A stretch of DNA of 64,000 bases from Zelonia costaricensis (lineage: Eukaryota; Euglenozoa; Kinetoplastea; Trypanosomatida; Trypanosomatidae), in assembly GCA_030849075.1 (NCBI GenBank), contig JASAOO010003461.1, positions 1 to 64,000 of the forward strand, in the 5' to 3' direction. The translations under genes were made by a program, and so were the position numbers. This document shows positions 9,642-61,424 of this stretch, piece after piece. The notes beneath the pieces were generated by a model. It was not told where the DNA came from and made no database searches. It saw only the letters and a program-made list of their open reading frames with translations. Every line of letters begins with the position of its first letter. Positions within the stretch are counted from its first letter, which is position 1.

Positions 9642-10443
9642 TCACCGACGCCGCGAGCTGCTGCTACCACTGCCGCTGCCGGACTTCCTGTCGCTCTTCT
9701 TGCCCCCGCTGCTGGAGGGCGTCGTGGACCGTCCGCGCTTGGAGGTGGACGACGGCGCCGCCGCTGAGGGAGACCGCCGCCGAGCCGCGTTGGCGCTCCC
9801 GGCGGAGCGGGCCGAGGACGTCCGTGCTGCGGCGCTGGTGACCGGCGCTGCGGTGCGCTTGTGCTTGCTGCTCGCCGCCAACCGACGCACGGCGCTGCTG
9901 CTGCTGCTGGAGGCGCTACTGCGGCTGCTCTCGCGGCGTGCACTGCGGCCCTTGCCAGCGACGGAGTTCTTCTTCTTGTTGCTGGCACTGGGGCGGCGGC
10001 GCTGATGGCTACTCACGGCGTCGAAGAGCTTCTGGAGGTCGAGGGGGGGGCCTGCCTCGCCGTCCTCCTCCTCCTGCTCCTCCTCGCCTTCTTCTCCCTC
10101 CCCGCCCTCCGCCCCCTCCCCGTCGCCCTCGTCACTGCCAGCGCCCGCGGCGTCCTCGTCTGCGGCCTGCGCGCTGCCCGGCGCACCCGCACCGCGGCTT
10201 GAGGGCCCCTCCTCCCCGGCCTCCCGCTTCGCCGCCGTGCGTGGAAACACCGACGAGATGCTCTCCGTGCCGTCGAGGGGCGGCGCGACGTTCGGCGTCC
10301 ACGGCCCCGTGACACTCGCAAGCCCGCCACCGCCACCACCGCCGCTGCCCATCGTCATCGCACCAGCGGGATACTGGAAACCGACCGCTGCTGCGCCCGG
10401 GGGCACCGCCATGCCGGAACTAGGACGGGACATGAAGGCCTGC

Positions 10444-10475
<32 letters not shown>

Positions 10476-13400
10476 GTACGCGCCAGGCGCAGGAGGACTC
10501 GCGCCGACAAGCGGGACACCAGCGTTGGCAGCGGACGCGCTCATCGGCGCAGCGCCGCCGCCGCCGCCCGCCGGAGTCGGCTGCGTACCACGCAACCCGG
10601 CGACGAGGCTCTCGGGGGTGATGACGTCGTGCAGCCACGCCAGCGCGTCCGCCTCGGCCTCCTCGGCAGCCGAGCGAGGCGGCGGAGGCGCGCGTACCGC
10701 AGCCTTGGACGGGCCCGCCCCAGCAGCCGTGGGCGTTGCCACGGAAGGCAGGGGGGCGTTGTAGTTAATGCGGTCCTCCATCACGAGGTCGCGGCGCAGC
10801 TCACGCGCCGTCTCCTCGCGCTGCCGCTGCAGCCGCGCCGACGAGTCCGTCATGCCGTCAAGCTCGTCGTTCATCATCGCCTCCAGCAGCGCGGCGGACT
10901 CGTGAATGTAGTCGCCGTCGGCGACGAGGAGCTCCTCGGACCGACCGATGCGACCCGCAGCGGGGGACGACGCCCCGCCACCGCCGGACCGCCCGGCTGC
11001 GGCGTCGCGGGAGAGCCGCGCGTCGCTGGCCACGTCGTCGAGCTCGGCCCCTGGCACGACCTCCTCCTCCCCGATGTTCACGTAGTCCGTGCCATCGTCG
11101 TCGTCGTCATCGTTGATGTTGATGTCCATGGCATCTGCCACAGCGCCGGCCCCTGCCGCCGCCGTGGCTGCTGCCGCCCCAGAGCCCCCCGCGGAGGCGG
11201 CGCCGCGGTGCAGGGCCTGGGCCATGAGGTCTGCGGCGGACACCACCGCCGACGTGTACGCCGGCAGTACCGTCGCGTCCGGCACAAGCTGCAGCAGCGT
11301 CGGCGAGAAGAGCGACTCGACTTCTTCGGGGGTGGCCATGACGTCCTGCAGGACGCGCACGCGGTGCGTCCGCTCGAGCTCGTCGATCAACTCGTTCAGC
11401 GTGCGGAAGTCCTTGGTGATGCCGAGGGCCTGCTGCAGCTCACGCAGCCGGTCCATGACGCCGTCCTCGAAGACGCTGTCGTAGTCGAGGTAGCGCGGCA
11501 CCGAGGCGCCTGCCGCAGGGTTGAAGGCCTCCACACTCATGCCGCCCGGCAGCATCCCCGCCGCCGCGCCCGGACCGCCACCGCTGCCGCTGCTGCGCCG
11601 GCGCCGGTACGCGCCACCGGTGTGAAGACCGCCGATGCCGGCGCTGCTCGCGTCCGCGCCTGGGTACGCCTCATCCAGCGACACCACTGTCACGTACTGC
11701 ACGGCCCGCACCTTGTCCACGGGCAGCACCTGCCGCTCCAGCACGTGCAGGACACCGAGCAGCGCCTCCGCGAAGCGGGCGACGACGTGGCGCAGCTGGG
11801 CGGTGGTTGTCACGATGTCGTACAGGGCCAGCGTGGAGCCGCAGACGAACACCACGTCGCAGCCGCCGTTGAGGCCCACCAGCGGGCGGAACGGGAAGTG
11901 GCTCGGCGCGGCACTCGCGAAGAACATCTTGTAGGCCGACACAGCCCGGCGCACCGTGTCCGGCGTGGCGCTGCGCAGGAGGGCGTCACCGACCCCGGCG
12001 GCCGTCGCTGCAGCGCCGCGCGCGTGGTGATGATGGGCGCTGCTGCTGCTGCTGCTGCCCCGCACCCGCGTCTCGGAGGCGAGGAGGGGGAAGCCGAACG
12101 ACGGCACCTTCAGGTTAAGCTCGAGCTGCGCGCCCGCCACGGCGGCGGAGCGGAGCAGCAGGGCGCCGTGCAGGAGGATGCGCATCGCGTCGCGCTTGCG
12201 GGAGGGGGTTGTCGAGAGGGTCGCCACGACGCTGCGGTACTCGGCCCACACCTCCGCCCACGCCCGCACCACCTTGCGCTCGTTGCTGCCCACACCGGTG
12301 CTGCTGCGCAGTCGCGCTGCGGCGGCCGCGGCCTGTGCTGCTGCTGCTGCTGCTGCTACTCCGGACTTGGACGACTTGCCGCCCTCCGCTGCTTCGCCGT
12401 CCTCGCGCTCGACCTCCGCCGCCGCTGCTGCTGCGGCGGCCGCCTCGCTGCCGTCGAGCAGCTGCCCGTCCCCGTTGAAGACGCGCTCGTCGATGGCGTC
12501 CTGCCGCGAGAAGATCGCAAAGAGGGCGAAGGGGTGCACCTGGCTACTGGTGTGGTTGTGCGGCAGCACCAGCCCGTCCTTCACGTCCTGCGGCGTTGTG
12601 TCGAGCTCGGTGTTGAGGTAGCCAGTCGGGCTGCTAAGCTGGCGCTGCAGCAGCTCGACGAGGCGGCGCCGCGTCCGCCGTGGGTTCTGCAGCAGGGTGA
12701 TGTACATGGGCAACTCGGCGAAGAGCTCGCGTGGCACGTAGCTCTGGAGTAGCTGAGGGTGGGCGGACCCGTTGCCCATCATCAGCCGGGGCAGCCCGGT
12801 ACGGAGGTCCATGAGGGAGACGCGGTGCGACCAGAAGAGCTCCAGCGCCTTGCCCGCCAGCGCCGGTGCATTCTTGAGCACCTCGTACAGCAGCCCCGGC
12901 ATGTCGAGCTGGTGGGAGAGGTGCAAGGCGTGCAGCGTGGCGAGCAGCGGCAGTACACGCAGCCGCGACTGCAGCCCCACCCCGCCTGAGAGCGGCAGGT
13001 AGTAGCGGCGACACGGCGCGGGGCAGTGCGCCAGCAGCAGCGGGGTGGCGGCGGTGCCGGTGAAGACGAAGTTGACCTGCCCCACCGCGGAGGAGATTTG
13101 GGTGAAACATGAGGAAAGGTGCTCCTCCACCGACTTGCCCGTCGCCAGCCACAGCGCCACGACTTGCTGACGCTGCTGCTCCAGCGACGGCGCGGCCGTG
13201 GACGCTGAGTGTGCGAGGCCGGTGGCAGCGAGGAGCGTCCGGGCGTTGCTGGCTGCCACCGCGTCCGCCCCCGCCCCCGCCCCACCACCGCCGCCGCCGC
13301 CTTCGTCCCCGTCGTCGTCCACATCGGCCGCGTCGTCCTCGCCGTCGTCATCGTTGGCGTCTGCGGCAGCCGGACGGGCCCGGCGTGGGTCTGCTGACGC

Positions 13401-16187
13401 CGCCGTGCCGCTCCCCACGCTGCCCATGCCGCCGCCGCCGAGGGCCACCGCGGCAAGGGCGGCGGTGTTGCCCCACTTCGCCTGCATCGCGCTCAGCGGC
13501 CGGTCCACGTCGTCCACGAGAATGGACGCGAGCTGCGCAGGCGCCGCGGACGACGCCGTCCATGCTGCGCCCCCGCCCCCGCCCCGCTGCTGCTGCTGGT
13601 GGTGTCGGTGCCCTGCTCCGGCGTTGCGGGCCGAGAGCAGCAGGCTCTGGTACCGCTCCCACGCCCAGTTCTTCTCGTGCCCCCACCAGTGCACACTGCG
13701 CGGGGCGCGAGAGTAGAGCTCCTCGGTGCGGACGAGGTACGGGCACGACGCCAGCGCCACGCGAAACCAGAAGCGCGCGGCGAAGGCCAGCGGGTGGTCG
13801 TCGAGGTCGGGCAGGTATGGCGTGGCGGAGCCGCCGTAGCGCACGAGCACGACCTTGTCGCCCGGCCGCGCCGTGCGCTCCGCGAGCTGCTCGAGCAGCG
13901 CCGTCTTGCCCGAGAGCGGCCCGGCCTCGATGAAGTGGATCGGCTTGTCGGCCGCGGCGGGTGGGTAGTGCAGCAGCGTGGTCAGCCGGTCCTCCAGCAG
14001 CTTCGCGGGTCCGAACAGCTGATGCAGCCCCACCGCCTCCGTCGCACTGAAGCCGTTGCCGCCGTAGCGCTCCGGCTGGGCCAGCACCTCATACAGGGAT
14101 GTCACAGCGAGCGTGTCGACCCGCCGCCGCAGGCGGTGCAGCACCGAAAGGTACTCCTGCTCCGTCGCGTCGTCGACGAGGCTGCCGCTCTCCCGCGCCG
14201 TGGACGAGGGCGGCTCGGGCTGGCCAGACCATTCGCCGAGCGACACGTCGAGGCGATGGGAGCCGGTGAGGAACGTGCCGGGCGCGTACGCCGGCGGGGC
14301 GGACACCGTCAGGCCGCTCAGCGACGACGGCGTGGGGGGCGCGGGGGCTGACGCGCGGCCGTACGAGGACGACGAGGCCGCGGCGGCGGCCGCGGCAGCG
14401 GCCTCGTCGACGGTGCTGTGAAAGACAAAGTACCGGACCGGCACGGTGCGCAGCTCCAGCAGGCTGCCCGCCCGCTTCAGCAGGCCAGGCACACGGTCCA
14501 GGGCGAGGTAGCCGTTGCCCTGCAGGGACTGCAGCTCGGCCGGGAGCTGGTGCACCACGGCCTGCTCCAGCAGCTGCGTGAGGGCGGCCGCGATGACGCC
14601 GTACGAGCGCTCGAGGATCTCGCGCTCGGCCTGCTCGTCGCCGCGGCCACCGGGGGCGGCGCCCATCGCGGCGTGGTTCGCCACGTAGTCCTGCCGCACG
14701 CTCGAGACTACCTTCTGCACAAAGCGCACGTAGTGGTCGAGCGTGCAGGCCTCGCCCGGTCGCAGCATCGTTGTCCCCGCTGCCGCGGTCGAGCTCTGGC
14801 CCGCGGACGTGGTCGGGCCGCCGCTGATGCCGGACGGCCCGGCAGCCCCGCCACGCACCACATCGGCCGGCATCCAGTCCCGCCGCTTGGTCCACATCGC
14901 CTGCGAGGCGCGGTCGATTGGGACTTGCAGCGAGTCAAGAATGAACTTCCCCATCACGTCCGAGACCCAGTGCGAGAGCAGGTCCTCCACGGCGTTGCTC
15001 GTGTTGACCACCTGGACGACTTCGGCCATGTACGCCTCCACGCTCTGGGCGACGGCGGTGTCCAGCGCGGTGCGGGTGCGGGCCGACACCTTCACGAGCT
15101 GCGGGTGCTCGAGCCACTGCTGCAGCGAGTGGATGCCGGCCTGCTGCAGCGCCGCGAGGTCCTGCGCAGGCGACTCGGCCGCCAGCCGCGCCGCCTGCTG
15201 GTAATACGGGCTCTGCTCCAGCCACTGCTGCCACTCCTTCTTCCCGCCCAGCGCGAGGAGCTGCCGCCGCGGCTGCATGGCGACATACTCGCTCATCGTG
15301 ATCCGCTCCACCCCGTCGGCCTGCGGGTCGATCAGGAGCTGCACCACCTTGGGCAGCGTCAGCTCTGACGCCAGCGTCTCCTCCACCTTCACGATGTCCT
15401 CCACGCGGGCGTCGAGGGTGGGGCCAGCCACGGCGGCCATGCGCCGCGCCGGAGTGGGCCGCAGTGCCCCCTCCTGCCGACGCAGCGCGGCGGCCGCGGC
15501 GCTCACCATCGCCTGCGAGGCTGCAGCTGCCGTCGCAGCGTTGGGGACCACAGGAGTGCTGGCTGTGGTGGTGAAGGAGGGAGCAGACGGCGGAGGGGGT
15601 GCAGCGGCGGCTTGGGACTGTGACGGAGCTGGCGACGGTAGCGCTGATGCGGTAGGCGCAGATGCTGATGGTGATGGGGGTGGCATCTGATGCCCTCGGA
15701 AGCCGCTGCCACCTGCAGGGGCTGTGAGAGTGGCAGCGCGAGCCGCCGTGGCCCCTTCGTCTGCGCGAGGGGTGACCACCGCGTTAAGGATGGAGGCGAG
15801 ACCCTGCGCATGCAGGGGTACGGCGGGACCGGACGGCGACTGTGGTTGCGGCGGTACTGCCCCCGCTGCAGAACTCTTGGACCGGTCTTGCAGTGCTTGG
15901 GCTGTCGGTGCGGCATGCGAGTTGCCGGGTGGCGGTGGCGCCGAGGCGGCGGCGGCGGCGGCGGTGCCCGGGTGGTGGTACCAGGGAAGCCGGCTCGGCT
16001 CGCTGCTTCCGGGCGGCTTGTAGACGTAGCGCCGCACCGCCGTCGCGCGCAGCAGGCCGGATCCGGCCTCCGCACCACCGGCACTGCCTCTGCTGCATGT
16101 GTCCAGGTGTGAGTGCGTGCAGGTGAGAGGGCACGCGGTGGCGCGCGTGCCGACGGCGAAGGACGCCGCTATGCGCCGACGCAGCAT
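9642..16187 (-). CDS. Large mitochondrial-type P-loop NTPase protein
   Basis: 2181 aa, no named family recognised. The chosen start at 16187 gives MLRRRIAASFAVGTR, a basic presequence-like N-terminus; further upstream the frame is translated repeat. Residues about 60-250 are Ala/Pro/Ser-rich. Residues 278-420 hold a helical block with two WLE motifs (QQWLEQSPYY, QQWLEHPQLV). Residues about 720-1130 look like a STAND/AAA-type NTPase: Walker A AGPLSGKT at about 755-762 (fits [AG]x4GK[ST]), Walker B-like LASILVDDVD at about 886-895, and a sensor-like NFVFTGT near 1040. A Gly/Asp-rich insert lies at about 915-980. Residues about 1185-1630 match the C-terminal block of the 1386-aa neighbour. The tail has a Gln run, an acidic stretch and a long Ser/Arg/Lys-rich end. 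The NTPase call rests on motifs; the substrate is unknown. Confidence 0.85.
10440..10475 (-). repeat. CAG repeat encoding a Gln run
   Basis: CAG/CAA codons in tandem encode about twelve glutamines near residues 1904-1915 of the 2181-aa protein. It is a likely length-polymorphic site. Confidence 0.9.
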
Positions 16188-17784
16188 GACTGCCCTCCCC
16201 CAAAAGCAAGCGCCCGCACACACGGCACACACACGCAGATGTGTTTGTGTGTGTGTACGTGTATGTGTGTTCGTGTGCTTGCGCCAGTGACGGGTAAAGG
16301 CAGGGGCGCGGTCTCGGAGCGTCGGCGTTGTAGTGGTGACGGTGCTGTATGGATGTTGTGTGCACGCACGCGCTTGTGTGCCACTGCCTGCGCGCACGCG
16401 AACTGGAAAGCAAATCAAGGAGAAACAGGAGAGAGAGAGGAGACGGCAGGACACGGAGAAAAGGGAACTCTGCGGGTGCGGAGAACACAGTGACGTCCGC
16501 GTGTTCTACGGTGTGCCTGTTTGCGTGTCCCCTCGGGTCACGGGCGTGAGTGTGTGTGTGTGTGTGTGTACTATGGTGGTGGCAGAGCGCACCCTTCTAT
16601 GTGCCTCTATGATTATCGAGGAACGCCGAAGCGATCGAGGAGGAGCGGAGGTGGGGATGGGAGATGACTTGTATGTGTGTGTGCGTGCGTGTGCGTGTGC
16701 CGGGGTGAGAGCGGCGTGCGCGGTGAGGTACGAGCGCACGGACGGAAGATAGAGGAAGCGTAGAAAGGGGTAGGGGGGTGGGGCGGACGGCAGCGCCAGT
16801 CAAGCACGCGAAAAACTTAAACACAGGAGATGGCGCCCCTCAGGTCCCATGAGTACTGCCGGCAAGAGTGAGGACGCGGCGTCCAGCTGGTGTCGTGTGC
16901 GTACGATGCTGGCCACTCCGCGACTCGCTCACTGCCTCCTCCACGCAATCCGCACGGGCGTGTGTATGTGCGTGGTGTGTGGGTCGCCGCACGTGGGGTG
17001 CTGAGGTGCTGGAGGAGAACGCAGTTGGTGGAACAGGGTGTGTGCGCGTGTGTGTCGACACCTCTATGGTTATTCACACACCTGCGACTGACCCAGGCTG
17101 AGAAAGGGGGCCCGCACAGTGGACAAGGGAGGGGGAAGTAGGGGAGAGCGAGAGACAAGTTCGGTGGCAGCGACAGGCACATGAACCTGAGGGGGAGGGG
17201 GGGGAAGGCAGAGCCCGCACACACAAGCACAGGGCGCAGTCTGACCTAGATGGAGGCACCCCAGGGCAGAAGACCCCTCCTCCGCCTGTGGAGGGCGATA
17301 GCGCAGGACGCGTTCTCGCACCAAAGCCACTATCGCACGTGCAGCGGTGCGCTCGCAGCGGTGTGCACAGCACCGAGTGCACCCAAACAGCCGCACTCTG
17401 CACCGCTTCTTCTTTTCCTGTTTTTTCCGCGCGTCGCTTGCGCCATTTCGCGTTCCTCGACAGCGCGCGCGCACCCTTGTGGTGTGCCGTGTGAACAACT
17501 TCGTGATGTTGGGTTTGTGTGTGTGTGAGAGAAACGCGAACGATCAGCGATAACACAAATACGGGGCGCCGTTGATGCCCGTGCCTTTCCCCACTACCGC
17601 CCCGACCAACCACTGGCAAGTACCACAGCTGCACACAAGTGCGTGCGCGCGTCTACACACACACACACACACAGACACACACGCGCCGCTTTCTTTCTCC
17701 GCCAGTGAATGGTACAAGAGGAAGGTAGAGCGGCAGGTACACGCATACGCACACAGACACACGCACACACACGAGCATGCAGTA
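16188..17784. other. Intergenic region, 1.6 kb
   Basis: No gene is supported. It contains TG tracts near 16240-16270 and 16547-16569, a CA tract near 17655-17682 and the putative acceptor of the 2181-aa gene. The remainder is probably the 3' UTR of the TPR-protein gene. Confidence 0.6.
16403..16447 (-). other. Putative spliced-leader acceptor of the 2181-aa gene
   Basis: A minus-strand pyrimidine tract from about 16447 to 16407, rich in CTCT and TTTC, ends in TTTCCAG with the AG at 16404-16403. No AG lies inside the tract. The implied 5' UTR is about 215 nt. Inferred from sequence only. Confidence 0.65.
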
Positions 17785-20034: not shown

Positions 20035-23000
20035 TCAGCTGGCAGTGTAGTCGGCCTGCATAATGTGGAACGCCTCGACGAGGTAGCGACGGCACTCCTC
20101 GGCAGTCATGCGTGCGGCCCAGGTGTGCCGGAGCAGCTCCAGAGTGAGGTGCTGCAGAGGGCTGAGCGGGGGGCCGGCAGCCGACGGGGCTCGCACGGCG
20201 GCGGCGCTGCTGCTGTTCTCCTTCGCTGCGCCCCTGCCGCCTCGCCCACGGCCACGCCCGGCGTTCGCCGGCGCGGCAACCCCCAGCACGGCCCCGGTGC
20301 TCGTCAGCAGCTTCACCGGCTTGCTGGCGGCAGCCACGAAGCAGTCCCGCGTGTGGTCCTCCTCGGCGGTGCAGTCGGGGTTCGTGCACTTGGGGTACAG
20401 GCGCCGACCGAAGAGCAGCTCGTAGAGCGTGGCGCCGAGGCTGAAGGCGTCGGTGGGCCGCCCACACACGGCGTCGCGCAGAGCGCGGTGATCCATGTAC
20501 TCGAAGGTGCCGTACGCGTCCTCGACCTCGGCCATCGCGTCAGGCCCGACGAGGCGGCAGTTGCCAAAGTCGGACAGGTAGAACTTGACGGCGTCCATCG
20601 CGGGGGGCCCTGACACAGACGACGCGGCTGCTATCGCGGCTGCGGTCTGCTGCGATGGGCCGTGCTCGTAGGCGAAGAGCACGTTGCTCGGCTTCAGGTC
20701 GAGGTGAAGCAGCCCGAGTTCGTGCATCGCCGCCAGCGCGGAGCTGACGCAGTACGCCACGCCCTTGGCCACACGGTCGCTGCGGGGAATGCCCTCCACG
20801 TCGCCGTCGCACAGCTCCATCACAAGAAACGCAGTCGCGTCGCTCTGGGTCAGGTCTTCCTCTGTGATGGACAGAAAGCGCGGGAGGCGCACGGCGTGCA
20901 TCGCCGCCCGCGTCGCCCGCGCCTCGGGCCCTTCGGCCGCCGCGATGCGCTCGAGCTGCTGCGCCACGTGCTGCTCGAAGGTGGCAGGCGTGTCCTTGGC
21001 TGCAGAGGACGCTCCCGTCGCTGTGGTGTGGGCCCCTGCCGCGTTGCCGCTGCGACCCAGCTTGAGCACCTCCACCTCCTGCGCCGCGAGCGCCTCGGCC
21101 TCACGCCTCAGCCGCCGCCGCCACTCCAGCGCCGCCTGCGCCGCCGGCGGCAGCGCCTCGCGGCCGTGCACGAAGAAGGCGCTGTGCAGCGGCAGCACGT
21201 ACGGCACCTGCATCTCGTTCAAGAAGCGCATCGTCGCGATCTCGCGGATGGTGGAGAAGGAGTCCTCGATGGTGGCCTTGGTGCGCAGTACGATCGGGCA
21301 CGACTTCACCGCCACGAGGTCGCCGTCCACGGTGCGGCACCGCCACACCAGCCCAAAGCTGCCCTCTCCCACGAACTCGGCCGACGCAAAGGCGGCCCAG
21401 AAGTCGCCGTCGTCGAGGAAATGCATCGGCGACAGGACACGCCGCGCGGCGTCCATGAAGCTCTTCTTGGTGAACTTGGTGGAGAAGAAGTCCCGCAGGA
21501 GGGCATCAGCGGGGCGGCCCCAGTCCGGCAGCGACGGCACCACCGGCGGTGCGGTCAGCGCCGCACTCGCGCGGCGCGGTCGCTTCTTCTCCCGCTGCGG
21601 CACGGCCGCTCTCGCAGCGGCTGCTGTGTTTGCTTTGGCCTTTGTCCTCGGCCCTGCGGCGTGGTCGTCCGCGTCGTCGTCCTCGTGGCGGTGATGGTGC
21701 TGCTGCTGGTAGTGCTGCTGGTAGGCGTGGATGCTCTCGTACAGGGGGCTGGCGGGGCGCAGCTCGGGGTCGAGGCGGTTGGGAAAGATGAAGTCCCGCA
21801 CGTTGGGCTTCAGGGGACTGCGCAGCGCGTTCTCAACGCCCCCTTCCTCGTCACCGTCGTCGCGGTCAGCGCGCGAGACGGCAGGCGGCACCGCCGGCGG
21901 CGCCGTGGCGGTAGCGGTGGCGGGCCGCCACACATCGCCAGTCGTGCGCTGGTGTGCAGCCGCCGCAGCCACCCTCGCCTTGGTTACCCTTTCCTCCTCC
22001 TCATCGTCGTCATCGTCGATGATGAGCGGCAGCGACAGCGGCGGCGTCACATCGCCGCTGCCGTACGGCGGATGGGTGTCTCTCGGCGAGACGCGCGTGC
22101 GCTTGCGAAGCGGCGCCTCTGCCCTGTCCATCTCCTGCTCCTCTTCCGGCGCTGTCGTGTGCCCCCCATTACTCGTCTCCGCGTTTTCCTCTTCCTCGCG
22201 TTCCTCGACTTCCTGGTTGTCATCGTCCAGGCAGATGTAGTGCTGCGGGGAGGTGGTCAGGCGCATCGCGCCATCCTGCAGGGGCCGGGCAACCCTGCCC
22301 GTCGTGGTGTGGGCGGGGCTCTCCTGCGGCGGTACGGGCCTGCCGGGCTTGGCCGTCACCGCGGCAGCGGGCGTAGGGCCGCTTGCGGCGTCGGGTGGCC
22401 GCCGGCGTGGTCGGAAGGTTGGCGACAGGATCGCAGCGATCGGGTTGCTCGTCTCTGGCGGCGGGCGGCGGCGCAGAGAGCTGGCAGCGGCGTCGCCCCC
22501 GTGCGCGCCTGCCGCCCCGCTGCCTCGGCTCGGACTGCGCGGACGTGCCAGCACCCCTCCCTCGCTGTGCTGCGCATCCACAGGGGTGGTGATGCCGGCG
22601 TTGGCGGGCAGCACCGGCGTCTGCTGCCCGTCCTCCTCTGCCTCGAGCTCCTGCTTCACCCGGACGCGGGACGCATGCCGCGCTTCGCTGCCGCGGCCCG
22701 TTCCCTCCGCGGGCCCCTCCCTCTCGTCCTCGGCATCCACGTCGACGCTGTCGCTGTCGTCGTCGAGGCAGATCCACATGGTGCCAGGGGACGCGAGGGG
22801 GCGTGTGGCGGCGGCCTGGGTGATGAGCTGCGTAGAAGGCCGCCCGGCAGCGCTCGCGAGCGGCTGCGTCGCCACCGACGTGGCTCGACTCGTGCCTTTG
22901 CTGTGTCGTGCAGTGCCGGGCACCACGCGTGAGGACGGCAGCGGCACCGCCGTGGCCGCTGCCGTCGCAATGCCGGCGGATGCCGCGCTCGACGCGTGCA

Positions 23001-25455
23001 CAAGCGGCTGCGTCGGGGACGGCGCGCGAGCGGATGTGGTCTCCGCGGGTGGCGAGTGCAGCACTGTGTGTGCACGGCCGCCGCCGCCGCCTAACGACGC
23101 CGGCGACACGCTCAGCGACGTGGGCAGGTGGGCCGGCTGTGGGGAGCGCCAGACGGGTGGGTCGCGCAGGCGCAGCAGCCGCTGTGGGGTGCCGCCGAGC
23201 CACGGCTGCGACGGGGTCGACGCTGATAGCGTGCTGATGCTCGTCGTGTGGTCCGCCTCTGCGTCCGTGTCCATGTGCAGCACTTCGTGGTCGGCGAGCC
23301 GCGAGAGCGGGGAGGAGGTGCCGCGGGAGGAGAAGCGCGGGTGCAGGTAGACGTGGGTGGGGTTGGAGGGGGCGATTGGGTGCGCGGGGAACGCCGTGGC
23401 AGACGACGCTGGCGGCGTGGCGTGTGGTGGGGTGGTGATGGTGGAGATGGCCGTCGTGGGGGGTGAGCCGCGCGCGGTCTCGGCAGTCGCCACGCCCATC
23501 CTCGTTCGCCAGGCCGGTGCGCTCGGGGCCGACGCGGGAGCTGCGGGCGAGCTCTGCCGACTCCGGCTGCTGCCGTGCATGCGCAGGTGGCCTGCCGACG
23601 GCGCGAACGGCGACGTGGCTGCAGGCGTGGTGGCCTGCGAGGACGTCTTGGGATGCGGCGACGGTAGCGCGTCTGGCACGATGCCGCTGCCGCTCCTGGG
23701 GCGGCCGTGCACGGCCCGGTGCGCGTCGTCGGGGCGGTCGGACGACTGCGTGGCGGAGAGGTGCGTGGGCTGCCGCTGCAGGAGGAGGTCGGTGCTGGAG
23801 CGGAGCGGAGGGAGGCCCGAGGCCGCTCGCAGAGAAAGAGAGGCCGTGGGCGGAGGGGTCTGCGCCGATGCAGAGCCTGGCGGGGGTCGCGAGGTGGCCG
23901 TGTCGGCCGTGCTGCCCTCGCTCCAGCGACTGCGACTGGCGCTGGCGATGCTGCTCACGTCGAGGGGGCGCAGCGGGTGCGCGCGGGACGGGCGCCGCCG
24001 CTGGCCGTCTACCCCACTGTCCTCGTCGTCCGCGTCGCTCGTTGCGGCCATGATGTGCGTGTCCTCGGGCGAGTCGGCGATGTCGGACAGCGAGGCAAGC
24101 GAGATGGAGCGGGGTCGCTGGCTGAACAGCTGCTTCACCGCCTCCGGGGTGGCGTGCCCCGCGGCACGGGGCGCGTGCGCCGACTTGTCCACGCCGTGCG
24201 AGTGCGCATAACCACCCCCGCCGCGCTGGCTCGCACTCTCCGCCGCATCCTCCTCGCGCAGGCGCTGCGTGCTGGGCGTGCTGCCAGCCAGCAGCTGCCG
24301 CTGCCACCGGTGGCTGCTCCGCTTGCTCTCACTGTCCGCCGTCAGCGCCTCTGGGCTGCCCTCGCCGCGGCGTCCGCGCAGTTCCTCATCGCCGTCGTCG
24401 TCGTCCCCGCGCTTGTGCGTCGCCGCGAGAGTTCTGAGTGGTGGCGGCGGTGTGCGAGGGTCAGGCTGCGACTTCTTGGCCGGAGAACGCCCGCGGTCCG
24501 GCGTGACGCGCCCGTCGATGGGGGGCGGCTCGCCCATGTCGGCTTCACTGCGGAACAGCAGCGTGTCTTCGCCATCCTCTTCTGCTGCGGCTGCTGCGAC
24601 CTCCACGAAGTGCGACGCCGACGCCGCCTGCCCGTCGCCGCTGTTGTCGTTGTTGTTGTCGCCGTCGCTTGAATCGTCGATGATGATGACGACGCCTTCA
24701 TCGCCTCCCTCGAGCACAGCCCGCGGCGACACCGAAGTGGGCGCCTGGCTGAGGCTGCGACGGCGATGTGCGTCTTCGGCGTGGTCGTCTGCGCCGGTGC
24801 CGCTGACGCTCGTCGTCGTCACGCCTCCTTCGTCTACTTCGTCGTCTGCTTCACTGCTGCTGCGGCGGGTGGTGGTGGACAGCGCCCTGGCTTTGATCTT
24901 TGCAGGGGCCCGGTGACCTCGAGCCGCTCGCGTGGCCGTGCCTGAGGTGCGGCCCTTCGCCGCACGCGACGTCGACGGCGCCGAGGCGGACGTGCGACGC
25001 GGGGGCGGCATCGGGCGGCGTGCTGTGGTGTTCGAGGTGCGGGCGGGTGCAGCAGCAGTAGCCGTGGCGCTACCTCTTCTTGCAGTCGCGGCGGCGGCAA
25101 CTTTTGTGGGGGCCCCTCGACAGCTGATGGAGGGGCGCCGCGGTGTGGCGGTCTTGGTCGGGGTCGCACGCCCACGGAGCGGGGACGCTGCCACTTGTTT
25201 GTGTGCGGCTGCGGCTGCTGCGGCCGCCGGGGCTGGTCGTCGAGCGGGTGCCGTCGTCGCCGCCGCAGACGGCCGGCGTGACGGTGCCGCTGTTGTGCGC
25301 GCTGCCGGCGCCTTGCGCTGTGCCGCCGGCGCGCTCTTCTTCGCTGCCTTGGTGCGTGCTGCTGCTGCTGCTGCTGCGGCGGCGGTGGCCTTCGCACGGG
25401 CCTTGGCTGATGCCGTGGCTGTTGTCGCCGCCACGGGCCGCTTCTTGGGCGGCAT
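20035..25455 (-). CDS. WEE-like protein kinase with SUMO-interaction-like motifs
   Basis: 1806 aa. Start at 25455 (MPPKKRPVAATT). Residues 1-200 are Lys/Ala/Arg/Pro-rich like histone H1 tails. Residues 200-1300 are Ser/Pro-rich and carry four hydrophobic-acidic motifs: VVIIIDDSSD (255-264), WICLDDDSD (894-902), YICLDDDN (1073-1080), LPLIIDDDDDEEEE (1142-1155). A psi-K-x-E site, VKQE, is at 933-936 and an NLS-like KKRPRR at 1290-1295. The kinase domain spans about 1355-1805: GEGSFG (1363-1368), VAVK with K1384, E1405 in helix C, HLDLKPSN (1584-1591), DFG (1629-1631), DAFSLG (1669-1674). The catalytic loop and the DxFSLG segment suggest the WEE/PKMYT group, whose known members inhibit CDKs by tyrosine phosphorylation. 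The APE glutamate is missing (GTFEYMDHRAL). Inserts lie at about 1430-1530 and 1598-1622. WEE assignment is moderate; kinase assignment is strong. Confidence 0.85.
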   Translation of the reverse strand: MPPKKRPVAATTATASAKARAKATAAAAAAAAARTKAAKKSAPAAQRKAPAARTTAAPSRRPSAAATTAPARRPAPAAAAAAAAHKQVAASPLRGRATPTKTATPRRPSISCRGAPTKVAAAATARRGSATATAAAPARTSNTTARRPMPPPRRTSASAPSTSRAAKGRTSGTATRAARGHRAPAKIKARALSTTTRRSSSEADDEVDEGGVTTTSVSGTGADDHAEDAHRRRSLSQAPTSVSPRAVLEGGDEGVVIIIDDSSDGDNNNDNSGDGQAASASHFVEVAAAAAEEDGEDTLLFRSEADMGEPPPIDGRVTPDRGRSPAKKSQPDPRTPPPPLRTLAATHKRGDDDDGDEELRGRRGEGSPEALTADSESKRSSHRWQRQLLAGSTPSTQRLREEDAAESASQRGGGGYAHSHGVDKSAHAPRAAGHATPEAVKQLFSQRPRSISLASLSDIADSPEDTHIMAATSDADDEDSGVDGQRRRPSRAHPLRPLDVSSIASASRSRWSEGSTADTATSRPPPGSASAQTPPPTASLSLRAASGLPPLRSSTDLLLQRQPTHLSATQSSDRPDDAHRAVHGRPRSGSGIVPDALPSPHPKTSSQATTPAATSPFAPSAGHLRMHGSSRSRQSSPAAPASAPSAPAWRTRMGVATAETARGSPPTTAISTITTPPHATPPASSATAFPAHPIAPSNPTHVYLHPRFSSRGTSSPLSRLADHEVLHMDTDAEADHTTSISTLSASTPSQPWLGGTPQRLLRLRDPPVWRSPQPAHLPTSLSVSPASLGGGGGRAHTVLHSPPAETTSARAPSPTQPLVHASSAASAGIATAAATAVPLPSSRVVPGTARHSKGTSRATSVATQPLASAAGRPSTQLITQAAATRPLASPGTMWICLDDDSDSVDVDAEDEREGPAEGTGRGSEARHASRVRVKQELEAEEDGQQTPVLPANAGITTPVDAQHSEGGVLARPRSPSRGSGAAGAHGGDAAASSLRRRPPPETSNPIAAILSPTFRPRRRPPDAASGPTPAAAVTAKPGRPVPPQESPAHTTTGRVARPLQDGAMRLTTSPQHYICLDDDNQEVEEREEEENAETSNGGHTTAPEEEQEMDRAEAPLRKRTRVSPRDTHPPYGSGDVTPPLSLPLIIDDDDDEEEERVTKARVAAAAAHQRTTGDVWRPATATATAPPAVPPAVSRADRDDGDEEGGVENALRSPLKPNVRDFIFPNRLDPELRPASPLYESIHAYQQHYQQQHHHRHEDDDADDHAAGPRTKAKANTAAAARAAVPQREKKRPRRASAALTAPPVVPSLPDWGRPADALLRDFFSTKFTKKSFMDAARRVLSPMHFLDDGDFWAAFASAEFVGEGSFGLVWRCRTVDGDLVAVKSCPIVLRTKATIEDSFSTIREIATMRFLNEMQVPYVLPLHSAFFVHGREALPPAAQAALEWRRRLRREAEALAAQEVEVLKLGRSGNAAGAHTTATGASSAAKDTPATFEQHVAQQLERIAAAEGPEARATRAAMHAVRLPRFLSITEEDLTQSDATAFLVMELCDGDVEGIPRSDRVAKGVAYCVSSALAAMHELGLLHLDLKPSNVLFAYEHGPSQQTAAAIAAASSVSGPPAMDAVKFYLSDFGNCRLVGPDAMAEVEDAYGTFEYMDHRALRDAVCGRPTDAFSLGATLYELLFGRRLYPKCTNPDCTAEEDHTRDCFVAAASKPVKLLTSTGAVLGVAAPANAGRGRGRGGRGAAKENSSSAAAVRAPSAAGPPLSPLQHLTLELLRHTWAARMTAEECRRYLVEAFHIMQADYTAS

Positions 25456-27220: not shown

Positions 27221-29482
27221 CTATGCGTAGTAGCGGTCAAAGCAGGCTGTCAGCCAGGCCCACTCCCAGCGACTGAGCTGCGCCGCGACACCCGCAGCAG
27301 CTGGCGCTGTCGAAAGGCTGTTGCACAGGTGCACGTACGACGCCCAGTCGCGCCAGGTGTCCGTTGCCATCAGCAACTCCCTGGCCCTCGCTGACTCGGG
27401 GCTTGCGGCCGCATCGTGCAGGACAGCCGCAGCGATGAGCTGCACCGGCACGGGTAGTTCGAAGACCTGCAGGAGGGCGAGCCGCTCCAGCATCCAGAAG
27501 AAATGCGCCAGTGCTGCGTCGGCGTCCGTGGAGGAGGACGGCGGCGCATCGCTCACGCGCTGTTGCTGCCGCAGCACCGTGCAGAGCTCCACGATGGACG
27601 GGTGTGTCGCGGCAAGCAGCAGCTCCTGCGACAGTGTCGTTCCGAAGACGCCGCGATCGTCGGTGTGGAAGGAGATGTTGGGGAGCACGTACGTCGATGG
27701 CGCCTCGGCAGAGCCGTCGCCGGTCGTGAGAGCAGCAGCGGCACCGGCAGCGGCAGCGGTAGCACCCTGATCGACAGCGGGGGATGAAGGAGGTCCACCA
27801 CCCCACCGCCGCGCCGCACGCGCCTGGCGGTGCAGCAGCCGGACCCGCTCTGTTGCGGTGTAGCACGGGTACGAGCCGCGCACCGCAGCGCCGTCGTCGC
27901 CGCCGCAGGCGTCACGTGTGTGGCTCTCTGGCATGGCGGCCCAGAGCTGGAGCAGGTCGCCCAGATGATGGTCCACCACGTCCGAGTGCCCGCCGGTCAG
28001 CAGGTTGCTCGTCAGGCACAGCTCGATCCCCTGCTGCGCCGCGAGGATGCGGGCAAGGTTGACAGGGTCGGTGAAGACGAGGTGACCCCACCGCTCGGGC
28101 GCGAAGTCGATCATCGCACGCAGCTCCCCCGCATCCTGCTTCTCACCCGCGTGGATCGTGATGGCGGCGCACATGTGCACGGACTCGGCACCGCCAGCGT
28201 GCCGCCCCCCTTCCACAGCCGCGCCGTCCGCTGCGCTGCTGCTGCTGATGTCCTCATCGCCGACGCCTCGCGCACCAGCCCGCGCAGCCGCCAGCGCCGG
28301 CTCCAGCTCCGCGTAGCGGCCCTTGTAGCAGTTCCCAGAGAAGTCCATGCCCGTCACCCAGCACGTTGCTCGCAGCCGGCACGCCACGAGATGCGACGCA
28401 TCCGCAGGGGCGTCGCTCGCACCGTCGGCGCCGGCTTCCAAGGAGGCCGGGACGTGCGTGCAGCACCACGCGTGGAACTCCTTCGCCTGCCGCTGCTGCG
28501 TCACGGTCGTGAGCCGCGCCGCCTCCCAGGCAGCCGCGACAGGCGCGCCACGGTTCACAGAGAGGAGGAGCCGCACGTGCATCCGCTGCGTGAGGTTGGG
28601 CTGGATGTACTCCACGAAATGGCGACGGAGAGCGGTGCTGAAGTCGTCCGCCTCTGTCGACGCAGGCCCCGCGCGGTGCGATGACGGCGACTGCAGCAGA
28701 GTCCGGTACACCCGCTCGTACACCCGCCACCACGCTGACGCCGTTGCGGCGGCGGAGGCCTCGGCCACGGGGAGCTCCGCGCCTGCCGAGAGCACCGCCG
28801 CGGAGGCCTCTGCGGGCATCAGCTCCCCCGTGGCGAAGTCGACGAGACCGCCAGCCAGCACGTGCTGCACGGTCTCGACCACCGTGTCCACGTACATTTG
28901 CTTCGTCACCACCGCACCGTCCTCGTCGTCGCCGCCGGCAGCGGGGGCCCGGAAGCCGCGGCGCATGCCGTCCCGCATCGAGGTGCGGATCTCCATCACG
29001 AAGATGTTCTCCGCTGCGCTGGTGATGAGCATGTCCTGCACCGCCAGCCGCGTGAAGGCGAGGTTTGTAAGCACCTTGTAGATGGCGTCGAACACGGTGA
29101 AGCAGTAGTGCATGCGCTCGGCCGGCGTCGCGGCAGACCCCGCTTCTCCACCGGATGCCGACGTCGGCGACGCCGCCAGCACGTTCTGTGCCCGCTTCTC
29201 CTGCGAGTTGAAGAAGAGGATATGGCCGGCCTCGTCACACGCGCTGCTGCCACTGTCTGTGCCAACCGGCGCGCTGGCAGCACCATCCGCGCCACCGTGG
29301 GGCAGGTGGAGAAGGCGCTCGAGGTGCGCGAGGAGCGGGGCGGAGATGCTGCCGTTGAGGTGGCAGTGGAAGTCGAGCTTGGGGACGCGGTGCAGGGCGG
29401 CGGTGAGGGGGCTGGACGGTGCCGCATCTGCGGGACTGCGCAGGAGCACCGGCTCCACCCTTGTGCGGTACAGCGCCTCCAT
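27221..29482 (-). CDS. ADAL: Adenosine-deaminase-like metallohydrolase (ADAL type)
   Basis: 753 aa. The protein aligns by eye with ADAL/MAPDA, which removes the N6 group of N6-methyl-AMP and similar purine nucleotides; the adenosine/AMP deaminase superfamily is the broader fallback. Zinc and catalytic elements are all present: HCH (H39, H41) in VPKLDFHCHLNGSIS, where the HLNGSIS wording is typical of ADAL; HAGE (444-447); ERWGH with H467; FHTDDRGVF with D608 and D609. IELCLTSN (486-493) and TTLSQELLLAA fit the same barrel. At 753 residues it is about twice the usual 350-aa ADAL; the extra length lies in Ala/Gly/Ser/Asp-rich inserts near 65-125, 175-290, 345-365, 400-435 and 520-600. The start at 29482 is the first Met before the conserved region; the frame above it is repeat. 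Probably cytosolic, purine salvage or nucleotide clean-up. Confidence 0.88.
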   Translation of the reverse strand: MEALYRTRVEPVLLRSPADAAPSSPLTAALHRVPKLDFHCHLNGSISAPLLAHLERLLHLPHGGADGAASAPVGTDSGSSACDEAGHILFFNSQEKRAQNVLAASPTSASGGEAGSAATPAERMHYCFTVFDAIYKVLTNLAFTRLAVQDMLITSAAENIFVMEIRTSMRDGMRRGFRAPAAGGDDEDGAVVTKQMYVDTVVETVQHVLAGGLVDFATGELMPAEASAAVLSAGAELPVAEASAAATASAWWRVYERVYRTLLQSPSSHRAGPASTEADDFSTALRRHFVEYIQPNLTQRMHVRLLLSVNRGAPVAAAWEAARLTTVTQQRQAKEFHAWCCTHVPASLEAGADGASDAPADASHLVACRLRATCWVTGMDFSGNCYKGRYAELEPALAAARAGARGVGDEDISSSSAADGAAVEGGRHAGGAESVHMCAAITIHAGEKQDAGELRAMIDFAPERWGHLVFTDPVNLARILAAQQGIELCLTSNLLTGGHSDVVDHHLGDLLQLWAAMPESHTRDACGGDDGAAVRGSYPCYTATERVRLLHRQARAARRWGGGPPSSPAVDQGATAAAAGAAAALTTGDGSAEAPSTYVLPNISFHTDDRGVFGTTLSQELLLAATHPSIVELCTVLRQQQRVSDAPPSSSTDADAALAHFFWMLERLALLQVFELPVPVQLIAAAVLHDAAASPESARARELLMATDTWRDWASYVHLCNSLSTAPAAAGVAAQLSRWEWAWLTACFDRYYA

Positions 29483-30727
29483 CGCCGCGGTGCTGATGCC
29501 GAGTGCGAGGGGGGAGGGGGACGGGAGGCTGGTGGAAGACGGCCGGGGTGGTGTCCGTGGTGGGGCGTGGGGATCATGAGACACGTGCGGCGTGTAGGAA
29601 AGTATGGAGAGGAGAAGCGTCGCGGTGATGACGGTGATGTCGATGAGGGCGGGAGGAGGAGGAGTATGGACACATGGCAGGGGAGGGGGGGGGGACTGCC
29701 GCAGCGCAGTTGGGTTTCCATACTGGCGTGGGGCTCTCAGCTCCCTGCACCACTGCCAGCGAGAACCTTCTCCCAAGCACACACACACACCGCGACCTGC
29801 GCCTGCTCAAAGGCACGAGACCGACCGCTGAGAGCATCCACGGCCAAGACGCGTGCGCGACGCACTAAACAGCTCCACGCACCGGCACACTCGACGTGAA
29901 GTCCTCGGACGACGACGTCACATCGAGAAGGAGACGCACAGGGAACGCCCCCCCCCCCACCCATTGTCGAGCTGCTGCACGCTGCGTTGAAGACCTTTAC
30001 CCTTGATGCGTGCCGCTTTGCTCTCTTTTTAGCGATGCCCGCGACGCTCATCATCCGACCCTGAGGGGGCGACACCCAGACACACACACACACACACACG
30101 TACACACGTGCACACACACGCGTTCACACACGCCGTCGCCCTCACCTCCGTCATCTTCGGCTCTTCACGCGCGTAGCCGCGCACACACCGTTTATGCGTG
30201 GCGGAGCGTGCGTGCAGGCGCATGAGGTGCAAGACCAGGAAGTGCGATACGAGGGAGGAGAGTGGGGACGGCGCGATGGCAGGGGCGCCGTCGGGGCTTT
30301 GGGGGGGGGGGAAGGGGGCGCCGTGCGACCGTTCAGCCGCCGGCGACATCGGCGCTGGTGCACACCACAATCCGCTGCGGACAAGTTGCACGTCCGCAAA
30401 CCCGACAAACCACCGCCGCAGGCACACGGGATTCAGATAAGAAGGGAGACGCGTCGAGCCCCGACGTCGGATGGACACGTCCTCGTGCTTCTCTCCTTGT
30501 GTGTGTGTGTGTGTGTACGGTAAAGGCGAACGGGGATGTGCCCGCCTCACCCCCCCGCTCTCCGTGCAGGCTCGGATGCGTTGGTTTCATCCGTTTCTCG
30601 TTCTTTAGGAAAACAGAGACATACGCACAGATATTCCACCGCAAACGCACACTGGACGTGTTGCTGCTCCTGGCGCGCGCACCCCCGCCCCGGATGCGCG
30701 CGCGATTTTGTATGTGTGGCTTGCCGT
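29483..30727. other. Intergenic region, 1.2 kb
   Basis: No gene is supported. It contains a C run near 29950-29959, a CA tract near 30081-30100, a G run near 30300-30309 and a TG tract near 30499-30515. Minus-strand AGs preceded by pyrimidines occur close to the ADAL start, but none is clearly best. Confidence 0.6.
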
Positions 30728-32062: not shown

Positions 32063-32653
32063 TTACGCCCGCTGGCCGGAGCGCAGGTGCGGGTCAGCGA
32101 ACTGCTCAACAGAGAACCATCCCTTCGCCTCCGCCTCCGCAAACTCCTTCGGGAACGCCGCCTTCTCCCACGTGAGGTAGTTCACGATCTGGCGCTGCAG
32201 CTGGCGCATGTTGAGCTGGAAGGGGTTCAGCTTGTGGTCCAGCGTCATGCGCTTCAAATCCGTGCCGTAGCGCTGGATCAAGTTCACTATGGTCGACCCC
32301 TCCTGCTCGCTGACCGGGCGGCCGATTTTGCTTGCCTTGACGCGCTTCTCGTGCTCGGCGAGCTCGTTCTGCTCCTCGAAGATGCGGCGGGTGTGGGGCC
32401 GCACCTTGGCCTTGCGCCGCTCCGCTGCGGACTTGGGGGCGCTGGGATCGATGGCGAGGCCGAGGCGCGTGAAGGTCTGCTCAGCGGTATTGTTGCCCTC
32501 GAAGTACTTCTGGGTGAAGCGGTTGTTCGCGCCTGCCACGTCGACGGCGCGGACGTGGGCGAAGCGGCGCTTCAGATACTGCTTCTTTCCGACGCGGGTG
32601 ATGGGGATGTTCTTCTTCACCTTCCCCTTGGGCGTCACCTTGATGCGGCCCAT
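32063..32653 (-). CDS. NOP16: Ribosome biogenesis protein NOP16
   Basis: 196 aa, basic, a normal NOP16 length. NOP16 is a nucleolar factor of 60S pre-ribosome assembly. The N-terminus is Lys/Arg-rich (MGRIKVTPKGKVKKN). The C-terminal part carries the family signature: LIQRYGTDLKRMTLDHKLNP, then FQLNMRQLQRQI, equivalent to the ..KYG.D...M..D.KLN..Q.T...L pattern. No signal peptide or membrane segment is seen. In the 85 nt before the ATG the minus strand has a long C-rich tract but no AG; the first upstream AG is at 32740-32739, so the tract probably lies inside the 5' UTR. Confidence 0.92.
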   Translation of the reverse strand: MGRIKVTPKGKVKKNIPITRVGKKQYLKRRFAHVRAVDVAGANNRFTQKYFEGNNTAEQTFTRLGLAIDPSAPKSAAERRKAKVRPHTRRIFEEQNELAEHEKRVKASKIGRPVSEQEGSTIVNLIQRYGTDLKRMTLDHKLNPFQLNMRQLQRQIVNYLTWEKAAFPKEFAEAEAKGWFSVEQFADPHLRSGQRA

Positions 32654-33469
32654 CGTGGCGTAGGAGGCGATGCGCAGAGGCCGTGGGGTGGGGGAGAAAA
32701 GGGGTGGGGGGGGGGGTGGGGTTGGTGGTGTAGGCGGGCTGCGGGTGCCGAGAAGGTCGCGGTGATGCAGTCGGGGAGTTCGGCGCGCAACGCTGCCGGG
32801 AGAGGGTTGCAGACAGCTGTGACTGTGTGTGTGTGTGGAGGGGGGGGGGCGCAGATAGTGGGTAGCAGGGGTGGGAGAGGTTAGGGCAACTGCAGTCAGC
32901 AGAGAATAGGCAAGCATGGTGCTCGCGTGGAATGCGGCACCGCGTCAGCGAAGTCCATTGGCGCGTGCCACGGCTGCACGGCTCGCTCTCCCAGCTGCCG
33001 CACTGTCACAGATAGGCGCCGCTGTCTTCGCTGAAGGCTGCAGAGGGCACCAAGCGGCGCAACAGCGGGCCAGTGCACTTTCGTGGGTGGGAGGCGTGGG
33101 GGAAGGGGTGATCATCTGCAAAGGAGCTTGTCGCGTGGTGCACGTTGGGAGAAGAGGCACGGCGGGGTAGGGACACCGAGCCGCGGGCTGATGTAACTCA
33201 CACAAGTCACGTAGAGGAGATCAAGAGAGAAGAGAAGTGCGTCTATGAAGTGGCGATGGGGGCCACCGCCGCCGCCGCCGCCACCGCCACTGCGGCGGCT
33301 GACCGCCTCACCCGCCCCCTGAGCACACGCACACCGAAATGCACTCACGAGCGTGCCCGTGCGCCGGTGTTCAGGGTGAGTGTGAGAGGAGGGGGAGGGG
33401 GGGGAGAGGGGAGGGGGACGGGGCAGCCCACCTTCGGGTGGAGAGGGAGGAGAAGAAAGTCCAACACGC
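32654..33469. other. Intergenic region, 0.8 kb
   Basis: No gene is supported. It contains C-rich minus-strand tracts near 32690-32722 and 33390-33420, a TG tract near 32824-32838 and a GCC-type run near 33260-33290. It should contain the NOP16 5' UTR and the H3 3' UTR. Confidence 0.6.
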
Positions 33470-61421: not shown

Positions 61422-61424
61422 TTT

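What the first reader, a model, noticed from the sequence alone, without database searches (positions are those of the whole stretch)
20035..25455. Kinase with four SUMO-interaction-like motifs and a consensus SUMO site
VVIIIDDSSD, WICLDDDSD, YICLDDDN and LPLIIDDDDD each match the hydrophobic-core-plus-acid pattern of SIMs, the first in the phospho-SIM form. VKQE followed by acidic residues fits a negatively-charged SUMO acceptor site. A multi-SIM kinase would be a reader of poly-SUMO; such a kinase has not, to my knowledge, been described in trypanosomatids.
Basis: partly seen in the sequence, partly recalled or inferred. Interest (0 to 1): 0.75.

Follow-up and report, generated by a model that had tools for sequence, protein, structure and literature searches.

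The report
Kinase with conserved SUMO-binding-like motifs
A gene of a single-celled parasite encodes an unusual protein kinase whose long floppy tail carries several conserved short motifs that look made to grip the protein tag SUMO, suggesting that the enzyme is steered to tagged proteins, although no binding has been tested.

Summary
The four motifs and VKQE are exactly where stated, in an 1806-aa trypanosomatid protein with a low-complexity N-terminal tail and a C-terminal orphan kinase with intact catalytic residues. They exceed chance: the published SIM-a pattern occurs twice (0.04 expected), a looser one four times (0 of 10,000 shuffles). Conservation supports three motifs. W-I-x-L plus acids (S2) is in 26 of 37 family sequences, from Bodo to Leishmania, and behaves position by position like a parallel SIM (psi-psi-X-psi, then acids). 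S3 and S4 are mostly kept in 15 Leishmaniinae-type homologues. S1, the "phospho-SIM", is not conserved; VKxE is confined to Leishmania-like species. The genome encodes SUMO with an intact groove core, one SENP-like and two MIZ-domain proteins. Against: two of four motifs miss the strict pattern, the motifs lie 70 to 640 residues apart, and AlphaFold gives S2 some order beside the kinase domain, so S2 may dock in cis. Best reading: a SUMO-directed kinetoplastid kinase, a new variant of a known kind (HIPK2 and viral BGLF4 are SIM-bearing kinases). SUMO binding is untested.

The parts
20035..25455 (-). kinase gene, 1806 aa plus stop, start ATG at 25455
   Evidence: similar MPPK-type start in Leishmania, Porcisia, Leptomonas, Trypanosoma and Bodo homologues
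25432..25455 (-). basic N-terminus MPPKKRPV, NLS-like by eye
   Evidence: similar first residues in P0003, P0005, P0007-P0009, P0011, P0012, P0014, P0018-P0023, P0041; a nuclear role is inference
24664..24693 (-). S1, VVIIIDDSSD (aa 255-264), strict SIM-a match, not conserved
   Evidence: core identity 0.18; comparable motif in P0002 and P0006
22756..22848 (-). conserved module aa 870-900 (AGRPSTQLITQAAATRPLASPGTMWICLDDD), holding S2
   Evidence: 26 of 37 sequences; AlphaFold block means 85, 67, 64
22750..22776 (-). S2, WICLDDDSD (aa 894-902)
   Evidence: W 26/26, I 26/26, position 3 seven residue types, position 4 L/I/V 26/26, next four places D/E/S 26/26
22648..22659 (-). VKQE SUMO-acceptor consensus, K934, followed by acids (LEAEED)
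   Evidence: counterpart in 11 of 26 sequences with S2, this one included
22396..22443 (-). conserved island aa 1005-1020 PIAAILSPTFRPRRRP, role unknown
   Evidence: PTFR also in Trypanosoma and bodonid homologues
22216..22239 (-). S3, YICLDDDN (aa 1073-1080)
   Evidence: hydrophobic kept 0.87, 0.93, 0.07, 1.0 at positions 1-4; core identity 0.63
22003..22032 (-). S4, LPLIIDDDDD (aa 1142-1151), strict SIM-a match
   Evidence: core identity 0.83
21706..21807 (-). conserved island aa 1217-1250 (PNVRDFIFPNRLDPELRPASPLYESIHAYQQHYQ)
   Evidence: identity 0.76
20056..21477 (-). protein kinase fold (aa 1327-1800); K1384, E1405, D1586 of HLD, N1591, D1629 of DFG invariant in 33 aligned sequences
20839..21168 (-). 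about 110-residue, largely helical insertion (aa 1430-1539) between strands taken as beta-4 and beta-5 of the kinase N-lobe
   Evidence: secondary structure of the model; strand naming is mine

Best explanation
The gene encodes a kinetoplastid orphan protein kinase, predicted active, whose long disordered N-terminal tail carries several SUMO-interacting motifs (S2, S3, S4; S1 in this protein and few relatives). The motifs would let the kinase gather at SUMO-rich places, such as SUMOylated complexes or SUMO foci, and phosphorylate partners there; in Leishmania-like species the kinase is perhaps SUMOylated itself at K934, which its own or another copy's SIMs could bind. Shown by sequence: motifs, their conservation and positional constraint, catalytic residues, presence of SUMO genes. 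Inferred: SUMO binding, nuclear site, recruitment, SUMOylation at K934.
For: Motifs exceed shuffles. Over 37 family sequences looser motifs number 61 against 1.17 expected and strict ones 24 against 2.15, while the motif in reversed order occurs 9 times; the sequences are related, so these are not independent counts. S2 in 26 of 37: W and I invariant, position 3 free (C, Y, F, H, S, E, T), position 4 L/I/V, then D/E/S at the next four places in all 26. In the sub-site scheme of PMC12751080 (section 16 read) a parallel SIM is psi-psi-X-psi then acids; position 4 docks in HS1 (strictest), X in HS2 (permissive), and by its ordering position 2 in HS3 (second strictest) and position 1 in HS4, which partly overlaps the Trp pocket of ATG8. 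That is the observed order of constraint. S3 shows it too (0.87, 0.93, 0.07, 1.0 kept hydrophobic); acids after the cores of S2-S4 are kept at 0.95 (n = 10) against 0.41 (n = 136) for other acids of the tail. Sequences without the S2 module often hold other such motifs under a further widened pattern: two LIRLDD-type in each of P0025, P0026 (one as LLRLDD) and P0042, FILLDDDD and VVILDDDS in P0024, VIDLDDDD in P0039, YILVDDSD in P0035. Own SUMO keeps the groove-core letters of human SUMO2 (FKIKR.T.L.KL) and has V-K-A-E near its start; one SENP-like match and two MIZ-domain genes. T. brucei SUMO chains made in bacteria bind a four-SIM RNF4 probe (PMC5825156, passages).
Against: No binding data. 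Two of four motifs miss the strict published pattern; S1 is not conserved. Among 4-residue windows of the tail S2 is in the top 1.6% for identity and S4 in the top 4.8%, but S3 only in the top 13.6%, and other islands without SIM character are as conserved. S2-S3 are 179 and S3-S4 70 residues apart, not a tight tandem. AlphaFold (aa 860-1806, 29 sequences, mean pLDDT 59.3) gives the S2 module block means 85, 67, 64 with a helix and a two-residue strand or bridge at S2, while S3 (29) and S4 (35-46) stay low; in one of 50 structural rows the alignment begins in that helix (PKG). The most conserved motif may thus serve the kinase domain in cis. 11 of 37 sequences lack the anchored W module, among them the T. 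equiperdum one; four of the 11 have tails of 99 to 156 residues. In 8 of 37 no looser motif was found, though P0037 and P0038 among these do have the W module with Ser after the core. With parasite extracts PMC5825156 found no significant difference between wild-type and mutant SIM probe.
Confidence: 0.52

Rival explanations
1. S2 and its preceding helix are a cis-docking segment that packs on the kinase domain and regulates it; only S3 and S4 (or none) bind SUMO.
For: The whole 30-residue module is conserved, longer than a SIM; AlphaFold gives it block means 85/67/64 with a helix and a bridge in a model whose kinase domain is mostly 80-95, unlike S3 and S4; in 1 of 50 rows the alignment to a PKG chain begins in the helix.
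Against: Confidence is moderate and coordinates could not be inspected, so the partner of the bridge is unknown; acids or Ser follow S2 in 26 of 26, which cis-docking does not need; the T. equiperdum homologue lacks the module but keeps a kinase domain and a YILVDDSDSD motif.
Confidence: 0.2
2. S2 and S3 are ATG8-interacting motifs (AIM/LIR, W/Y-x-x-L), linking the kinase to autophagy.
For: W-x-x-[LIV] in 26 of 26 at S2; ATG8-like genes in this genome (5 matches, 4 over cut-off); SUMO HS4 and the ATG8 Trp pocket overlap in part (PMC12751080), so the motifs resemble each other.
Against: Position 2 is invariant Ile where LIRs allow variation (family knowledge); acids lie after the core only; the xLIR pattern (recalled) fails at 26 of 26 S2 sites; S1, S4 and the LIRLDD motifs of other lineages have no aromatic.
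Confidence: 0.06
3. Acidic patches with hydrophobic anchors that bind basic partners (histones, import or other factors); SUMO not involved.
For: Asp/Glu-rich runs follow the cores; aromatic-plus-acid patches bind histones in known chaperones (recalled).
Against: Such patches need no strict psi-psi-X-psi order, yet that order with a free third position is kept in S2 and S3.
Confidence: 0.15
4. Chance motifs of a low-complexity tail.
For: S1 alone behaves so: core identity 0.18.
Against: Shuffles and conservation for S2-S4.
Confidence: 0.05

Closest known systems
HIPK1-3, notably HIPK2: nuclear kinases with a SIM in the speckle retention sequence
   Same: protein kinase with a SIM outside the kinase domain; in HIPK2 the SIM is needed for partner binding and chromatin opening (PMC7490299, abstract and passages)
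   Different: one SIM described, kinase domain at the N-terminus; here three or four motifs, kinase at the C-terminus, orphan kinase
Epstein-Barr virus kinase BGLF4, two putative SIMs
   Same: kinase with more than one SIM whose function depends on them (PMC12751080, passage)
   Different: viral, acting on host SUMO; sequence family unrelated as far as I recall, not compared here
RNF4-type SUMO-targeted ubiquitin ligases
   Same: several SIMs joined to a catalytic domain
   Different: ubiquitin ligase, not kinase; SIMs in tandem (the four-SIM RNF4 probe is described in PMC5825156)
Predicted SIM proteins of T. brucei (102 proteins) and the ESB1/ESBX proteins
   Same: kinetoplastid proteins with predicted SIMs in disordered or unstructured stretches (PMC5825156; PMC12890818; passages)
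   Different: no kinase is named in the main text of PMC5825156; its table was not available

Membership tests
SUMO-interacting motif (parallel type) | core psi-psi-X-psi followed by acidic or phosphorylatable residues | tested here: met
   S1-S4 in this protein; S2 in 26 of 26 sequences that have the module
SUMO-interacting motif (parallel type) | strict published pattern SIM-a (first residue P/I/L/V/M) | tested here: inconclusive
   met by S1 and S4, not by S2 and S3, whose first residue is aromatic
SUMO-interacting motif (parallel type) | lies in disordered sequence when unbound | tested here: inconclusive
   S3 block mean 29, S4 35-46; S2 block 64
SUMO-interacting motif (parallel type) | binds SUMO, lost on core mutation | not testable with these tools
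   needs a binding assay
poly-SUMO reader of the RNF4 kind | SIMs in close tandem | tested here: not met
   spacings about 640, 179 and 70 residues (positions)
negatively charged SUMO acceptor site | psi-K-x-E followed by acids | tested here: met
   VKQELEAEED at aa 933-942; counterpart in 11 of 26 sequences; modification itself untested
eukaryotic protein kinase (PF00069) | fold plus catalytic Lys, Glu, Asp, Asn and DFG | tested here: met
RD-type kinases | HRD arginine | tested here: not met
   Leu at that place in 33 of 33
PAK/STE20 family | closest fold and family signature | tested here: inconclusive
   PAKs lead one fold list, ULK1 the other, at 13-24% identity; a profile search at E 1e-10 lists only CaMK1
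ATG8-interacting motif | xLIR pattern (recalled) | tested here: not met
   0 of 26 S2 sites; the looser W-x-x-L core is met

The most novel reading that the evidence does not exclude
A SUMO-gated kinase: the S2 module (helix plus W-I-x-L strand) docks on the kinase domain in cis by adding a strand, and SUMO or SUMO chains, for which the same strand is a ligand, pull it away, so that the kinase is switched on or freed only at SUMO-rich sites. S3 and S4 would supply extra grip, and K934 a feedback site.
Probability: 0.1. Interest if true: 0.85.

Novelty: new variant of a known kind. Interest (0 to 1): 0.55.

Why it matters
SUMO is tied to VSG expression and nuclear organisation in T. brucei (abstract starts; PMC5825156 passages) and its gene is essential for growth or viability of Leishmania donovani promastigotes (PMC7602377, passages). 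A kinase family whose tail keeps SIM-type motifs from a free-living bodonid to Leishmania would tie SUMO signals directly to phosphorylation there, and it gives a small set of residues to test. It would also show that a Trp at the first SIM position can be kept over very long times.

Tried and rejected
Tried: PDB sequence search for a close kinase relative: only general kinase matches (best E 2e-7; profile search with cut-off 1e-10). NCBIfam: nothing above its cut-offs. A third homologue search with the T. vivax module found only the query itself although known homologues hold that module, so it was too insensitive to say whether other proteins carry it. Second AlphaFold model: coordinates not available, so the partner of the S2 bridge could not be named. 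Orthologue in the literature: the L. major and T. equiperdum/brucei contig lengths fit chromosomes 10 and 8 as I recall them, and LmxM.10.0830, an orphan kinase required in mouse footpads but dispensable in cultured macrophages (PMC13211308, Table 1 passage), is a likely orthologue; no sequence link was made, so it is not used as evidence. Searches with gene numbers that I guessed gave nothing. Rejected: pure chance for S2-S4. Wee1 membership was considered by eye from the HxD motif: a Wee1 structure is rank 13 in one fold list; no further test was made.

Controls and limits: nine other long window ORFs hold three looser motifs in all. The looser pattern, the wider one and the DNA patterns were chosen after seeing the motifs. 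In one search the first 100 of 186 places were listed; contig C392 holds seven of those, so clusters occur elsewhere. The second-best SUMO-like match (L010) and four weaker ones were not examined. Rows left out: P0027-P0032 (general kinases) were not used; the identity counts use P0003-P0017 only (P0002, 98% identical in the kinase part, and all Trypanosoma and bodonid rows left out); the 33-row alignment has no P0025, P0026, P0041 or P0042. The 37 sequences include the window protein, P0002 and truncated homologues.

Full report
What is there. The minus-strand ORF 25455-20035 encodes 1806 residues. Residues 1 to about 1300 are low-complexity and rich in Ala, Pro, Ser, Thr and Asp; residues 1327-1800 fold as a protein kinase with confidence (model of aa 1305-1806: mean pLDDT 85.7). 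Pfam finds PF00069 at 7.7e-23. The catalytic Lys, Glu, Asp, Asn and DFG Asp are invariant in 33 of 33 aligned sequences; the HRD arginine is Leu in 33 of 33. The kinase is an orphan: sequence and profile searches of solved structures give only general kinase matches, and fold lists are led by ULK1 or PAK at 13-24% identity.

Are the motifs real? All four and VKQE are at the stated places. Motifs 1 and 4 meet the published SIM-a pattern quoted in PMC5825156; motifs 2 and 3 do not, because W or Y stands first. Strict pattern: 2 observed, 0.042 expected, 7 of 10,000 shuffles. Looser pattern (widened after seeing the motifs): 4 observed, 0.022 expected, 0 of 10,000 composition shuffles and 0 of 10,000 block shuffles. 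Nine other long ORFs of the window hold three looser motifs in all. W-I-x-L-D-D-D is found once in the whole genome, here; I-x-[L/F]-D-D-D at 10 places, two here; [ILVM]x[ILVM]DDD at 186 (reversed control 199), three of them in 765 bases of this gene, with 4 in the window against a shuffle mean of 0.06.

Are they conserved? In 15 Leishmaniinae-type homologues (P0003-P0017) the tail averages 27% identity to the window protein and the kinase part 66%. Core identity is 0.93 for S2, 0.83 for S4, 0.63 for S3 and 0.18 for S1; among all 4-residue windows of the tail, 1.6%, 4.8%, 13.6% and 48.7% reach these values, and 16.1% reach that of VKQE (0.57). Non-motif hydrophobic residues of the tail average 0.33 identity and stay hydrophobic in 0.48 (n = 162); acids after S2-S4 are kept as acid or Ser in 0.95 (n = 10) against 0.41 for other acids (n = 136). 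Other islands of the tail are as conserved and have no SIM character. S2 with its preceding stretch (RPSTxLIxKAAATRPxxSPxTMWIxL) is in 26 of 37 sequences, the window protein included, among them Bodo saltans (P0023) and P0037 and P0038; P0025 has a WIPISEEEE that the anchored count missed. The ten others lack it: short tails P0033, P0034, P0036 and P0039, and P0024, P0026, P0035 (T. equiperdum), P0040, P0042 and P0043. Several of these hold other psi-psi-X-psi-acid motifs under a wider pattern: two LIRLDD-type in each of P0025, P0026 (one as LLRLDD) and P0042, two in P0024, and others in P0035, P0039 and P0043; P0033, P0034, P0036 and P0040 show none. Eight of 37 hold no looser motif.

SIM or something like it? 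PMC12751080 (passages and section 16 read) describes a parallel SIM as psi-psi-X-psi followed by acids. Position 4 docks in HS1 and is nearly always Leu, Ile or Val; HS3, position 2 by the order given, is next most selective; HS2, position 3, can take polar residues. S2 shows position 4 L/I/V in 26 of 26, position 2 Ile in 26 of 26, position 3 seven residue types including E, T, S and H, and acids or Ser in the next four places in 26 of 26. S3 keeps hydrophobicity at 0.87, 0.93, 0.07 and 1.0. The invariant Trp at position 1 is unusual; the review notes that HS4, where position 1 would dock, partly overlaps the Trp pocket of ATG8. That makes a LIR the nearest look-alike, but LIRs leave position 2 free (family knowledge) and the recalled xLIR pattern fails at 26 of 26 sites. 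ATG8-like genes are present, so this rival is not excluded.

The SUMO side. The genome encodes a SUMO (L009; 115 residues from the Met that I chose, ending TGG plus five, with V-K-A-E near its start) whose best solved matches are human SUMO2 and entry 2k8h, 'Small ubiquitin protein' (T. brucei SUMO as I recall). The stretch FKIKRGTQLKKL aligns with FKIKRHTPLSKL of SUMO2, so the groove residues named in PMC12751080 (SUMO1 Phe36, Lys37, Val38, Lys39, Thr42, Lys46, Leu47) are kept, with Ile for Val38 as in SUMO2; the numbering was carried over from the review's SUMO1/SUMO2 correspondence. One SENP-like match (41 profile positions, E 2.7e-5) and two MIZ-domain genes were found. In T. brucei, SUMO chains made in bacteria bind a four-SIM RNF4 probe, though with parasite extracts the difference from the mutant probe was not significant; 102 proteins were predicted to hold SIMs (PMC5825156, passages).

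A result against the plain reading. A second AlphaFold model of aa 860-1806 (29 sequences, mean pLDDT 59.3, pTM 0.58) leaves S3 (block mean 29) and S4 (35-46) disordered but gives the S2 module block means 85, 67 and 64, with a helix (aa 873-883) and a two-residue strand or bridge at Ile895-Cys896. In 1 of 50 structural rows the alignment begins in that helix (PKG). I could not look at coordinates. S2 may therefore dock on the kinase domain, instead of or in competition with SUMO. This lowers my confidence that S2 is simply a SIM and gives the boldest reading, a SUMO-gated kinase.

The acceptor site. K934 fits psi-K-x-E with acids after it. A psi-K-x-E lies 36 to 41 residues after the S2 Trp in 10 of 26 sequences and 23 after it in P0006: the window protein and its near twin P0002, Leishmania, Porcisia and the unnamed P0006. 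P0015 (Leptomonas) has MKYD and IKRE at 48 and 59; the others have none within that distance. It is a plausible but lineage-limited feature.

Verdict. Most likely this is a SUMO-directed kinetoplastid kinase (0.52), with cis-docking of S2 the strongest rival (0.2). Kinases with SIMs are known (HIPK2, PMC7490299, abstract and passages; BGLF4, PMC12751080, passage), so this is a new variant of a known kind. The listings of searches show no SIM-bearing kinase of trypanosomatids, within the limits of that library.

Noticed in passing
window 22396-22443 and 21706-21807: Two further conserved islands of the tail, PIxxxLxPTFRxR (PTFR also in Trypanosoma and bodonids) and VRDFIFPxRLDPELRPxSPLYxSIHAYQ, role unknown.
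   Followed up: partly
window 20839-21168: About 110-residue, largely helical insertion in the kinase N-lobe.
   Followed up: no
G000 contig C392: Seven [ILVM]x[ILVM]DDD matches among the 100 listed of 186, five of them on the minus strand between 13689 and 23228: perhaps another protein rich in such motifs.
   Followed up: no
   Followed up: partly
window 32063-32917, 40929-42158, 27221-29788: Neighbouring minus-strand genes: Nop16-like, FKBP-type isomerase, and an adenosine-deaminase-like protein just below the Pfam cut-off.
   Followed up: no
window 9642-16454, 42357-48104, 54726-61589: Three very long ORFs (2270, 1915 and 2287 aa) without a Pfam match at E 0.01.
   Followed up: no
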